Origin: Collimonas silvisoli
GTDB taxonomy: Bacteria; Pseudomonadota; Gammaproteobacteria; Burkholderiales; Burkholderiaceae_D
Reading direction: 5' to 3'
NCBI RefSeq assembly: GCF_018305005.1
Contig: NZ_JAGQEG010000010.1
Coordinates: 1-64,000 of the forward strand
DNA: 64,000 nucleotides
The notes under the pieces are model-generated. The model was not told the DNA's origin. It worked only from the letters and a program-made list of their open reading frames with translations, and ran no database searches. The first letter of the stretch is position 1, and every line of letters starts with the position of its first letter. Positions 43,002-45,818 of the stretch are shown here, piece by piece. The translations under genes were made by a program, and so were the position numbers.

Positions 43002-43880
43002 TCAGGCTGCTTGCCGACTCACCAGCTGCGCAACGGTTTGCTGCGGCTCGTTGAGCTTCAGGGTCAGGCATTTTGCAGCACCGCCAGCCTTGAGGAATTC
43101 GGTCAGTGCTGTCTGATGAACAATAAAGCCGTGCGCTTGCAGCTGCGCGACCAAGGCATCGGATGCCTGGTTCAGGAAGATATGGCGGCCCGAGTTGACG
43201 GTATTGCAAGCAAAATGCAGGGCGTCTTCGCTGCTGACGACGATTCGCTTGTCGGCTGGAACCCGCGCTGCAATGTGTGCTTGCGAAACGGCGTCGAAGG
43301 CTTCCGGGAAATACATCACATAACCGCCGGCGAGCGGGCAAAAGCAGGTGTCCAGGTGATAGAAACGGGCATCCACCAGTTTCAGCGGCTGGACTTCAAT
43401 TTCCAGCAATTCGGAAAGCTTGGTGGCGCAGGCAATATCCGAGCGATGGCCGTGACCGAACCACAGCAGATTTTCGCTGCGGTCCATCAAAGCGTCGCCG
43501 GCGCCTTCGAAAGGCAGTTCCTGCGGCAAGGTCAGCACTTCGAAGCCATGCGCGGTAAACGCTGCTTCGAAATAAACTTCCTCGGCTTGCCGTTCGACAT
43601 GGCGGAACCGCGAGAGCACCACTTTATTACCCAACACCACGCCGGCATTGGCAGTAAATACCAGATCAGGAACCCCCGGCATGGCCGGCATCATCTTGAT
43701 TTTCGCTACTTGCCCGATGGCTTCCACCAGTGCCAGCCACTGTTGCATGGCGACGCTACGGTTGCCATGCGCAATATTGCCAGCCATCCACGGATTAATG
43801 ACGTAGGAAACTTCAAAATGGTCAGGAGCACACATCAGGAATGTGTCCTCCGCGGTATGGTCCAGCAGGTGGTTGGTCAT
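43002..43880 (-). CDS. Predicted arginine dihydrolase (ArgZ-like guanidino hydrolase)
   Basis: The product is 292 aa, amidinotransferase/deiminase fold. Key residues: Asn29 in SYVINPWM, Asn78 in DLVFTANAG, Glu125 in LPFEGAGDA, His175 in FYHLDTCF, Ala197, and nucleophile Cys271 in GGAAKCLTLKL. As I recall them, the determinants of cyanobacterial arginine dihydrolase ArgZ are N22, N71, E118, H168, A190 and C264, each exactly 7 lower. Arginine dihydrolase yields ornithine, CO2 and 2 NH3. DDAH or citrulline hydrolase are alternatives. AAGGAG precedes the start, which overlaps rocD's end by 4 bp; RocD would use the ornithine. Confidence 0.75.
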   Translation of the reverse strand: MTNHLLDHTAEDTFLMCAPDHFEVSYVINPWMAGNIAHGNRSVAMQQWLALVEAIGQVAKIKMMPAMPGVPDLVFTANAGVVLGNKVVLSRFRHVERQAEEVYFEAAFTAHGFEVLTLPQELPFEGAGDALMDRSENLLWFGHGHRSDIACATKLSELLEIEVQPLKLVDARFYHLDTCFCPLAGGYVMYFPEAFDAVSQAHIAARVPADKRIVVSSEDALHFACNTVNSGRHIFLNQASDALVAQLQAHGFIVHQTALTEFLKAGGAAKCLTLKLNEPQQTVAQLVSRQAA

Positions 43881-45115
43881 GCGTAGCTCCTTTCGGTCAG
43901 GGTTGGTAGAGAAGAAAATGCATGTTTTATCGCTGCCAATGCAGCGTCGATATCGTTGGCGCTAATAATCAATGGCGGCGCAAAACGGACTACGGTGTCA
44001 TGCGTGTCTTTCGATAAAATCCCTTGTTGCATCAGGCGTTCGCAGAATTCGCGCGCAGAAATGAAGCTGGGGTCGAGATCCATACCGATCAGCAAGCCTC
44101 TGCCACGGATCTGGCGAATCGCGGGGTGCCGTATCGCCCGCAAGCCGGTCAGTAGGCGCTCACCCATGAGTTGCGCGTTGTCCGCCAGCTTGTCGTCGCG
44201 CAGCAGGCGCAAAGAGGCATGACCGACTGCGGCCGCCAGCGGATTGCCGCCAAAGGTGCTGCCGTGATCGCCGGGGGTAAATACGGCCATCAGGTCTTCT
44301 CTGGCTAAAAACGCCGATACCGGCAGCAGGCCGCCACCGAGTGCTTTGCCGAGAATCAAACCGTCCGGCTTGATGCCGTCATGGTCGCTGGCCAGCAGGC
44401 GGCCGGTGCGGCCCAGCCCGGTTTGCACTTCGTCGCAGATCAGCAGCACATTGTGGCGATCGCAGATTTCGCGGCATTTTGCCAAGTAGCCTTCGGGCGG
44501 CACGATGATGCCGGCTTCGCCCTGGATCGGTTCCACCAGGAAGGCTGCGGTACGGGGGGTAATGGCGGCTTCCAGCGCGGTAGCATCGCCAAACGGAACG
44601 CTGACGAAACCGCCGGAAAACGGCCCGAAACCGTCGCGGTACTGCGCCTCCGAAGAAAAACCGACGATAGTCGTGGTGCGGCCTGCAAAATTGCCGTGGC
44701 AGACGATGATTTCGGCGCCGCCGTCGACACCTTCTTCGGCGATGCCTTTCACCTTGTAACCCCATTTGCGGGCCGCCTTGATGGCGGTTTCAACCGCCTC
44801 CGCACCGCTATTCATCGGCAACGCCTTAGGCATGCCGGTCATTTCGCACAGCAATTGCAGGAACGGCCCCAGCTGGTCGCTATAAAACGCCCTGGAGACG
44901 ACTGCCAACTGGGCAGCCTGCTTGCTCAATGCCGCCACCAGGGCAGGGTGACTATGACCGAAACTGACAGCGGAATAGGCCGACATCATGTCCATGTAAA
45001 GTTTGCCGTCCTGATCCCACAGCCAGATGCCTTTGCCGCTGCTGAGCACTACCGGCAGCGGTTCATAGTTGTGCGCGCAATAGCGGTCTTCGAGAGTTAT
45101 TGCATGGTTCTTCAT
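43877..45115 (-). CDS. rocD: Ornithine aminotransferase RocD
   Basis: The product is 412 aa, class III aminotransferase. The PLP lysine is Lys257 in GLILGKALGGGLLPVSAF, with ICDEVQTGLGRTGRLLA upstream. N-terminal EDRYCAHNYEPLPVVLSSGKGIWLWDQDGKLYMDMMSAYSAVSFGH is typical of RocD. It makes glutamate semialdehyde from ornithine and 2-oxoglutarate. It is first in a two-gene operon with the ArgZ-like gene, and divergent from an Lrp regulator. Confidence 0.93.
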   Translation of the reverse strand: MKNHAITLEDRYCAHNYEPLPVVLSSGKGIWLWDQDGKLYMDMMSAYSAVSFGHSHPALVAALSKQAAQLAVVSRAFYSDQLGPFLQLLCEMTGMPKALPMNSGAEAVETAIKAARKWGYKVKGIAEEGVDGGAEIIVCHGNFAGRTTTIVGFSSEAQYRDGFGPFSGGFVSVPFGDATALEAAITPRTAAFLVEPIQGEAGIIVPPEGYLAKCREICDRHNVLLICDEVQTGLGRTGRLLASDHDGIKPDGLILGKALGGGLLPVSAFLAREDLMAVFTPGDHGSTFGGNPLAAAVGHASLRLLRDDKLADNAQLMGERLLTGLRAIRHPAIRQIRGRGLLIGMDLDPSFISAREFCERLMQQGILSKDTHDTVVRFAPPLIISANDIDAALAAIKHAFSSLPTLTERSYA

Positions 45116-45350
45116 GGTCGGCTCCAGGTGAGGCCACTTCTAAGAACCTAGCCTGCACAAGGGCCGATATGCCGATGACATCTGGCCCGCGGCGGACGCT
45201 GGCTGAGGCGCTTAGAGGTAGCTGCAAAATGCTGTTTTATAGGTGTGCTGCATCTGGTTACATGGTAATCACAAGTGTTGGAAATATTTTTGCGTAATTG
45301 CTCGGCGATTCGCTGTAATCTGCACGAATCATGCATAAAAGGAGATTTGG

Positions 45351-45818
45351 ATGGAAAAATTAGATCGCTACGACCGTATTTTGCTGCGAACTTTGCAGGC
45401 CAACGGCCGCGCTTCGAATGTGGAGCTGTCCGAGCAAGTCAGTTTATCGCCGCCGCAGTGTTACCGGCGCGTCCAGCGGCTGGAGAAAGACGGCATCATT
45501 CGCGGTTATGCGGCGCAGGTGGAGCCGGCCGCCATCGGGCTCGGCGTGGTTGCGTTCGTCAACCTGAACATAGCGCGCGAGCAGTTCAAGCAGGTGCGCA
45601 AGCTGGAAAAGGCGATCCGGCTGTTTCCGGAAATCCTGGAGTGCTACACGATTTCGGGAGATTTCGATTATCTGCTGAAGGTGGCGGCCAGCGATCTGAA
45701 ATCGCTGTCGGCGTTCTTGACCGATCGCTTGATGCAGGTGCCGGGAGTGGCCGGCGTGCGGTCCATGGTTTGCCTGGAAGAGATCAAGCCGTCCAGTCCC
45801 TTGCCATTGGCGGATTGA
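45351..45818 (+). CDS. Lrp/AsnC-family regulator of the arginine operon
   Basis: The product is 155 aa. N-terminal helix-turn-helix (YDRILLRTLQANGRASNVELSEQVSLSPPQCYRRVQRLEKDGIIRGY) and a C-terminal RAM domain (FPEILECYTISGDFDYLLKVAASDLKSLSAFLTDRL). Such regulators respond to amino acids. A strong AAGGAG precedes the ATG. Divergent from rocD over a 235-bp region, it most likely controls rocD and the ArgZ-like gene in response to arginine or ornithine. The intergenic region 45116-45350 shows no gene. Confidence 0.9.
   Translation: MEKLDRYDRILLRTLQANGRASNVELSEQVSLSPPQCYRRVQRLEKDGIIRGYAAQVEPAAIGLGVVAFVNLNIAREQFKQVRKLEKAIRLFPEILECYTISGDFDYLLKVAASDLKSLSAFLTDRLMQVPGVAGVRSMVCLEEIKPSSPLPLAD

What the first reader, a model, noticed from the sequence alone, without database searches (positions are those of the whole stretch)
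43002..45818. Predicted arginine dihydrolase-RocD-Lrp cassette: arginine to glutamate semialdehyde without urease, arginase or ADI route
Seen: the ArgZ-like protein has Asn29, Asn78, Glu125, His175, Ala197 and Cys271. Recalled from published work on cyanobacterial ArgZ: N22, N71, E118, H168, A190 and C264, each exactly 7 lower. rocD overlaps by 4 bp and an Lrp gene is divergent. Inference: arginine is cut to ornithine, CO2 and 2 NH3, and ornithine is then transaminated. No ArcB/ArcC genes are in the neighbourhood.
Basis: partly seen in the sequence, partly recalled or inferred. Interest (0 to 1): 0.62.

Follow-up and report, generated by a model that had tools for sequence, protein, structure and literature searches.

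The report
Collimonas arginine dihydrolase–ornithine transaminase operon
A soil bacterium of the Collimonas type carries a small, probably self-regulated gene set that is predicted to convert arginine to ornithine in one step, with a relative of an enzyme known from cyanobacteria, and then to turn the ornithine into a glutamate precursor.

Summary
At 43002-45818 lie a single-domain relative of cyanobacterial arginine dihydrolase ArgZ/AgrE (55% identical; AlphaFold model 0.9 A from ArgZ crystals), a RocD ornithine transaminase overlapping it by 4 bp, and a divergent Lrp gene. A sharper test is FxAN + HLD, separating ArgZ (N,D) from arginine deiminase (D,D), DDAH (acidic,K) and citrullinase CtlX (N,N); the window protein is N,D. 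Relatives often, not always, sit beside or are fused to ornithine-consuming enzymes, including a recurrent RocD-ArgZ fusion gene. A palindrome, a candidate operator, is conserved beside lrp. ADI and AstB are not found over cut-off in 5 Collimonas genomes, and 11 of 12 argZ-bearing genomes searched have no arginase over cut-off. The nearest described arrangement I found is the mycobacterial roc cluster. Ornithine as product is inferred, not shown. Verdict: real, probably a non-cyanobacterial arginine-dihydrolase/RocD operon; a new variant of a known kind.

The parts
43002..43880 (-). argZ-like gene: single-domain arginine dihydrolase homologue, 292 aa
   Evidence: ORF; NCBIfam Arg_dihydro NF052232 381 bits (cut-off 450 not reached); PDB sequence hits up to E 0.1 are ArgZ/AgrE only; AlphaFold model vs 6jv1 rmsd 0.9, TMt 0.98
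43877..45115 (-). rocD: ornithine--oxo-acid transaminase, 412 aa; its stop overlaps the argZ start by 4 bp
   Evidence: TIGR01885 510.8 bits, cut-off 378.4; PF00202; overlap
45351..45818 (+). lrp: divergent Lrp/AsnC-family regulator, 155 aa
   Evidence: PF01037 and PF13404/PF13412 over cut-off; NF008370 141 bits, below its cut-off 233
45116..45350 (.). divergent lrp-rocD intergenic region (235 bp)
45320..45336 (.). candidate Lrp operator, 17-bp near-palindrome ATGCATGATTCGTGCAG (minus strand), 14 bp from the lrp start
   Evidence: conserved in relatives; coordinates; one of 2 sites in this genome at <=1 mismatch, the other inside a kdpA-like coding sequence (the kdpA name is recalled, from no family search)
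45261..45298 (-). second conserved intergenic block, possibly the rocD promoter (inference; the sigma-70 scan found none)
   Evidence: alignment; coordinates; scan
43887..43891 (-). AGGAG ribosome-binding-like site for argZ inside the rocD end
42918..42947 (-). terminator-like hairpin with T run after argZ, before metH
   Evidence: seen by eye; not listed by the scan (its loop limit is 8)

Best explanation
This is a locally regulated arginine catabolic operon. The ArgZ-like enzyme hydrolyses L-arginine twice at its guanidino carbon through Cys271 (with His175 and Glu125), giving ornithine, CO2 and two ammonia without releasing citrulline or urea. RocD, probably made from the same mRNA, transaminates ornithine to glutamate semialdehyde/P5C, which a genome-encoded PutA-type P5C dehydrogenase oxidises to glutamate. 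The divergent Lrp protein probably binds the conserved palindrome beside its own start and controls both itself and rocD-argZ in response to arginine or ornithine. Shown here: genes, overlap, homology, modelled fold, catalytic residues, conserved cassette and conserved palindrome. Inferred: substrate, product, direction of flux, effector and operator function.
For: 55% identity over the domain to ArgZ and AgrE, the only PDB sequence hits up to E 0.1; model 0.9 A from substrate- and product-bound ArgZ. Two-residue class N,D (FTAN + HLD) shared with ArgZ/AgrE and 139 of 142 non-redundant rows; ADI is D,D and CtlX N,N (PMC9007349); human DDAH has FVED and HLK, and PMC11659421 passages give Asp and Lys as the guanidino contacts of DDAH. 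Neighbours: of 18 single-domain loci in the 80 listed by the genome-contig scan, RocD is adjacent in 16 and a divergent Lrp in 17. Of 21 carrier genomes from two samples at E <= 1e-30 (16 of 399 in the order; 10 of 398 in the phylum, 5 of them new; the window's own genome is one of the 21), RocD is adjacent or fused in 6 and OCD adjacent in 3. RocD-ArgZ in one open frame in 6 of 8 carriers among 150 genomes of one family. P5C dehydrogenase of PutA type over cut-off in 5 of 5 Collimonas genomes.
Against: No activity data. The score is under NCBIfam's curated cut-off for arginine dihydrolase (381 against 450); no match in the samples reached it (0 of 399, 0 of 398, 0 of 150). Adjacency to ornithine-consuming enzymes would equally fit a citrullinase, since ctlX also sits by ocd. 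12 of the 21 sampled carriers show no ornithine-consuming partner among my queries: 6 are in a purF-metZ-argZ row and 6 had none. This genome also has arginase, so the cassette is not its only arginine-to-ornithine route. The fork joining the window's clade to cyanobacterial ArgZ is weakly supported (84/87, drawn open).
Confidence: 0.84

Rival explanations
1. Citrullinase (CtlX-like): it hydrolyses citrulline to ornithine, which RocD then uses.
For: Same superfamily, and ctlX sits by ornithine-consuming genes (PMC9007349); the window protein shares Asn at the first diagnostic position (FTAN; FPNN in CtlX).
Against: The second position is Asp in HLD (D177, 142 of 142 non-redundant rows), where CtlX has HTN. 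Overall similarity is to ArgZ/AgrE.
Confidence: 0.06
2. Dimethylargininase (DDAH): it cuts methylarginines to citrulline.
For: NCBIfam DdahMtb (NF045659) scores 218 bits, and the one Pfam hit is DDAH_eukar; public annotation of relatives is often 'dimethylargininase'.
Against: Below the cut-off of 300; ArgZ model 381 bits. FTAN instead of an acidic residue and HLD instead of HLK. The DDAH chains listed are 2.7 A or more away at 14-17% identity, against 0.9 A and 54% for the best ArgZ chains. Citrulline would not feed RocD (knowledge of the pathway).
Confidence: 0.04
3. Arginine deiminase: arginine to citrulline only.
For: Weak ADI-profile match (25.6 bits); common fold.
Against: Far under the cut-off of 489; FTRD is FTAN here. 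The partner is RocD, which uses ornithine.
Confidence: 0.03
4. An arginine dihydrolase, but serving nitrogen recycling (an ornithine-ammonia cycle, as proposed in cyanobacteria) rather than growth on arginine; RocD then makes proline or glutamate for other needs. It shares the enzyme step with the best explanation, so the two confidences overlap.
For: In six sampled genomes of one family argZ sits in a purF-metZ-argZ row without RocD. The window genome has a separate arginase module that could serve bulk use.
Against: The operon with RocD and an adjacent Lrp gene resembles the arginine-induced mycobacterial roc cluster (PMC4569260).
Confidence: 0.2

Closest known systems
ArgZ (Sll1336) / AgrE (Alr4995), cyanobacterial bifunctional arginine dihydrolase/ornithine cyclodeaminase
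   Same: Whole dihydrolase domain, 55% identity, equivalents of N22/N71/E118/H168/C264, HLD, modelled fold at 0.9 A
   Different: Single domain. The ornithine-consuming step is a separate RocD, not a fused cyclodeaminase; 292 aa against about 700 aa
Mycobacterial roc cluster (Rv2319c-rocE-rocD-Rv2323c, followed by the regulator Rv2324)
   Same: DDAH/ArgZ-like gene beside rocD with a regulator gene next to the cluster; arginine-induced in M. tuberculosis, and Rv2323c is needed for growth on arginine (PMC4569260: abstract, Results part 1, Discussion). That Rv2324 is of Lrp/AsnC type is recalled
   Different: No permease gene in the window cassette; gene order differs; the window enzyme is 32% identical to the M. 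ulcerans counterpart. Rv2323c itself was not compared
CtlX putative citrullinase
   Same: Superfamily, linkage to ornithine catabolism
   Different: FPNN/HTN against FTAN/HLD
Bacillus arginase pathway RocF-RocD, and this genome's own Lrp-OCD-arginase module
   Same: Arginine to ornithine, then an ornithine-consuming enzyme; in the C205 module a paralogous Lrp (67% identical)
   Different: Unrelated first enzyme and urea as by-product; OCD in place of RocD in the C205 module
DDAH and arginine deiminase
   Same: Fold and Cys-His-Glu chemistry (PMC11659421 passages)
   Different: Diagnostic residues, sequence distance and predicted product

Membership tests
ArgZ-type arginine dihydrolase domain | Full-length domain homology and fold | tested here: met
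ArgZ-type arginine dihydrolase domain | Catalytic/binding residues N22, N71, E118, H168, C264 | tested here: met
N29, N78, E125, H175, C271.
ArgZ-type arginine dihydrolase domain | N,D class at FxxN / HLD | tested here: met
   The class rule is my synthesis from PMC9007349, PMC11659421
ArgZ-type arginine dihydrolase domain | NCBIfam NF052232 curated cut-off (450 bits) | tested here: not met
   381 bits; 0 of 399, 0 of 398 and 0 of 150 sampled genomes reach it. It is a naming threshold, so I call the protein a homologue of the domain, not an NCBIfam equivalog
ArgZ-type arginine dihydrolase domain | Arginine to ornithine, CO2 and 2 NH3 | not testable with these tools
   needs an enzyme assay
Cyanobacterial bifunctional ArgZ/AgrE | C-terminal ornithine cyclodeaminase domain | tested here: not met
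   292 aa; the NF052231 match ends at profile position 277 of 696
Arginine deiminase (ArcA) | TIGR01078 cut-off 489.1; FTRD | tested here: not met
   25.6 bits; FTAN
DDAH | Acidic residue and Lys at the two guanidino-contact positions; NF045659 cut-off 300 | tested here: not met
   FTAN/HLD; 218 bits
CtlX citrullinase | FPNN and HTN | tested here: not met
   FTAN and HLD
RocD ornithine transaminase | TIGR01885 cut-off 378.4 | tested here: met
   510.8 bits; a second model, NF003145, scores 535.7 below its cut-off of 656
Lrp/AsnC regulator | HTH plus AsnC ligand-binding domain | tested here: met
   PF13404/PF13412 and PF01037 over cut-off; not an equivalog of E. coli Lrp (141 against 233)
Mycobacterial-type roc cluster | rocE permease in the cluster | tested here: not met
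   no further gene between lrp and metH apart from rocD and argZ

The most novel reading that the evidence does not exclude
Arginine dihydrolase is not a cyanobacterial speciality but a widespread, modular way into ornithine in bacteria and some phages. The same enzyme domain is paired, as operon or fusion, with RocD, ornithine cyclodeaminase or (in phages) a lysine-6-transaminase-like enzyme plus an aldehyde dehydrogenase, sometimes beside a local Lrp gene. On this reading the actinobacterial 'dimethylargininases' of the Mtb type (NF045659) are arginine dihydrolases too, which would supply the arginine-to-ornithine step that a 2015 paper reported for M. tuberculosis without finding an arginase gene. 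Against it: a 2024 review states that Rv2323c acts as a dimethylargininase (PMC11008464 passages), though the 2015 Discussion it rests on reports that activity as an annotation; and I read no mycobacterial sequence.
Probability: 0.5. Interest if true: 0.72.

Novelty: new variant of a known kind. Interest (0 to 1): 0.5.

Why it matters
If right, many genes now named dimethylargininase or arginine-deiminase-related would belong to a one-step, urea-free arginine route, and metabolic reconstructions that follow those names would have the wrong product (citrulline instead of ornithine). The two-residue rule (FxAN + HLD) and the RocD-ArgZ fusion make this directly testable. It also offers a candidate explanation for arginine-to-ornithine conversion where no arginase gene is found, as reported for M. 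tuberculosis in PMC4569260.

Tried and rejected
Ala190/Ala197 as a signature residue: rejected, variable in the family and Ser in AgrE. 'No arginase or urease in the organism': rejected for this genome. A wider regulon for the Lrp palindrome: not supported at <=1 mismatch; the only other site in this genome, and the second sites of G010 and G003, lie inside a kdpA-like coding sequence; the second sites of G001 and G002 (one mismatch each) were not examined. At 2 mismatches the window alone has 6 strand-matches in 4 places against 1.56 expected (1 of 100 shuffles reached 6), so looser sites cannot be judged. The C205 module's promoter matches no better than shuffles (10/17). Sigma-70 scan: no hit. 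My own codon-based gene caller mis-called several loci; tblastn with known proteins replaced it. The tree has 88 rows: 30 inner forks are open, the bootstrap had not settled, and long branches meet; no larger tree was tried. MAG loci labelled Verrucomicrobiales and Bdellovibrionales (L160, L131) group with cyanobacteria and may be mis-binned.

The operator counts leave out L095 (no lrp found in the locus) and G010 (L206). The residue table leaves out L001, L175 and L178 and everything fetched, L223 included. The tree used 30 of the 80 IMG/VR loci and 11 cyanobacterial loci. Genome searches were samples (399, 398 and 150 genomes), not censuses; all 12 allowed were used. The search with Collimonas and arginine dihydrolase and the phage search gave listings that I did not open.
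Full report
What is there. The window comes from a Collimonas-like genome: the nearest named relatives of the protein are Collimonas (C. humicola 94-96%, OK307 93%, C. antrihumi 92%). Three ORFs make up the finding: an ArgZ-like gene 43002-43880(-), rocD 43877-45115(-) and a divergent lrp 45351-45818(+). The rocD stop and the argZ start share ATGA, and an AGGAG lies before the argZ start. A terminator-like hairpin (42918-42947, seen by eye) separates argZ from metH (metH named by eye). A 291-aa antisense ORF over argZ (43011-43886, +) was not examined further; I take it for an artefact.

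Family. NCBIfam gives the arginine dihydrolase domain at 381 bits and the Mtb-type dimethylargininase at 218 bits; both are below their curated cut-offs of 450 and 300. In the PDB, phmmer up to E 0.1 finds only ArgZ (Sll1336) and AgrE (Alr4995), E 4.8e-96 to 9.9e-94, at 55% identity. An AlphaFold model (pLDDT 91) lies 0.9 A from ArgZ with substrate (6jv1) and product (6jv0); the listed DDAH chains are 2.7 A or more away at 14-17% identity. AlphaFold may have seen such structures in training, so this is not independent of the sequence similarity. RocD is over its equivalog cut-off (510.8 against 378.4, TIGR01885). The regulator is Lrp/AsnC-like but not an equivalog of E. coli Lrp.

Residues. 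In 206 rows (the window and 205 loci, with duplicates; 142 non-redundant at 90%) N29, N78, E125, H175 and C271 are near-invariant, but position 197 is Ala in only 36 of 142. A better discriminator comes from the literature. Arginine deiminases have FTRD and HLD and the citrullinase CtlX FPNN and HTN (PMC9007349 section 8, read in full). For DDAH, passages of PMC11659421 give Lys at the second position and Asp as the opposite contact; that the latter is the FTRD position is my mapping, supported by FVED and HLK in human DDAH. The window protein has FTAN and HLD, as do ArgZ and AgrE and 139 of 142 rows; the exceptions are two rows gapped there and a Bacillus DDAH-family protein with FTRD. One contact is thus neutral and one acidic, which fits an enzyme that must bind first a guanidinium and then a ureido group; this last step is my inference.

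Neighbourhood evidence. The exceptions are L091 (Lrp but no RocD) and L095 (neither). The other 62 encode long ORFs (about 700 aa where complete; two are cut by contig ends), the length of the cyanobacterial bifunctional type. A sample of the order found carriers at E <= 1e-30 in 16 of 399 genomes, one of the phylum in 10 of 398, five of them new. Of these 21 genomes, the window's own included, 6 have RocD adjacent or fused, 3 have ornithine cyclodeaminase adjacent, 6 (one family) have argZ in a purF-metZ-argZ row, and 6 show no partner among my queries. In one family, 8 of 150 genomes are carriers, and in 6 of the 8 RocD and ArgZ are one open frame of 745-798 aa; of the other two, one match is cut by a contig start and one is unfused with no RocD in the fetched stretch. 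In Nonomuraea the ArgZ-like gene is followed by rocD. Three actinobacterial proteins over the cut-off of the Mtb-type dimethylargininase model (387-437 bits) carry the N,D pair; none of the three has RocD in the fetched stretch. I did not read a mycobacterial sequence.

Regulation. Nineteen lrp-rocD (or, in L091, lrp-argZ) intergenic regions were compared, with the C205 module of this genome as a twentieth; lrp starts in relatives were inferred from alignment. The best match to a 17-bp palindrome, ATGCACGATTCGTGCAT, lies 13-39 bp from the lrp start in 18 of 19 (64 bp in L098). 13 of 19 regions match at 13 or more positions, against 2 of 4000 shuffles; 6 of 19 match at 11-12, and shuffles reach 11 or more in 354 of 4000. 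The consensus was derived from the same regions, so the test is partly circular. With one mismatch allowed the pattern occurs twice in this genome, against 0 for the reversed control: here, and inside a kdpA-like coding sequence, where G010 and G003 have it too. The second sites of G001 and G002 were not examined. The regulator therefore looks dedicated to this operon; binding is not shown.

Rest of the genome. Urease alpha is over cut-off in 3 of 4 Collimonas genomes, this one included. Contig C205 holds a paralogous Lrp (67% identical), an ornithine cyclodeaminase and an arginase, both enzymes over their cut-offs, and a protein whose best match is a basic amino acid binding protein model, below its cut-off. 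Over 12 argZ-bearing genomes (10 with the full cassette, G010 checked; L091 and L095 without adjacent RocD), arginase passes the cut-off only in this one. ADI over cut-off 0 of 5, AstB 0 of 5, SpeA over cut-off 0 of 5, PutA-type P5C dehydrogenase 5 of 5. An agmatinase over cut-off is present here, so an arginine decarboxylase of another type is not excluded; arginine transaminase and oxidase routes, and arcB/arcC, were not searched.

Prior art. The mycobacterial roc cluster is the closest described arrangement I found: Rv2323c is needed for growth on arginine and for making proline from it, arginine is converted to ornithine, and no arginase gene was found (PMC4569260: abstract, Results part 1 and Discussion). 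A 2024 review says that Rv2323c acts as a dimethylargininase and is secreted (PMC11008464 passages); the 2015 Discussion gives that activity as an annotation only. Fourteen papers in the held library name Rv2323c and none of them also contains 'dihydrolase'. Searches for ArgZ, arginine dihydrolase with rocD or ornithine aminotransferase, AgrE, and Lrp with these terms showed me no description of this operon or of a RocD-ArgZ fusion; I saw capped listings and read few papers, and most subscription papers are not held. The two structural papers on ArgZ and AgrE were not held; their residue roles are recalled or taken from PDB titles. AgrE's two activities and the cyanobacterial pathway come from PMC8262935, read in full.

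Phages. 81 IMG/VR stretches encode relatives (80 kept); among deposited phages, Xanthomonas phage phiXF1 has one at 42% identity and six Bacteroides phages a partial match at 27%. In 14 of 80 loci, some of them near-identical copies, the order is aldehyde dehydrogenase, argZ, LAT-like class III aminotransferase (478 bits, cut-off 520.8), NDP-sugar dehydrogenase; 3 of the 14 have rIIA next in the fetched stretch. In L002 (53% identical to the window) argZ lies directly before rIIA and rIIB. This suggests true phage genes, at least there; in the other loci I did not check that the contigs are viral.

Judgement. The arrangement is a new variant of a known kind. Its wider interest lies in the modular pairing across bacteria and in the possible misnaming of related 'dimethylargininases'.

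Noticed in passing
L002, L050, L058-L060, L064-L066, L069, L071-L076, L216: Phage-borne ArgZ homologues; in 14 of 80 IMG/VR loci in the order aldehyde dehydrogenase - argZ - lysine-6-transaminase-like aminotransferase - NDP-sugar dehydrogenase, in three of them followed by rIIA. A possible viral arginine-to-glutamate module.
   Followed up: partly
L188/L202, L262-L266: A single gene coding a RocD-ArgZ fusion in 6 genomes of one family, mirroring the cyanobacterial ArgZ-cyclodeaminase fusion.
   Followed up: yes
L190-L195: Six genomes of one family carry single-domain argZ in a purF-metZ-argZ row without RocD, suggesting a different physiological role.
   Followed up: partly
L204 (own genome, contig C205: 1959-5517): A second, paralogous module in the same genome: Lrp, divergent ornithine cyclodeaminase, arginase, and a protein like basic amino acid binding proteins.
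   Followed up: partly
window 45847-46514 (-): RelE/StbE-like protein (20.7 bits, below the cut-off of 27.9) with a small upstream gene that looks like its antitoxin, just after lrp (antitoxin role by eye).
   Followed up: no
window about 47303-47382: Short tandem repeat giving SYLL/TQLL peptide repeats in the overlapping ORFs, between two small genes (by eye).
   Followed up: no
L160, L131: ORFs of 702 and 719 aa, the length of the cyanobacterial bifunctional enzyme, in contigs labelled Verrucomicrobiales and Bdellovibrionales MAGs; transfer or mis-binning.
   Followed up: no
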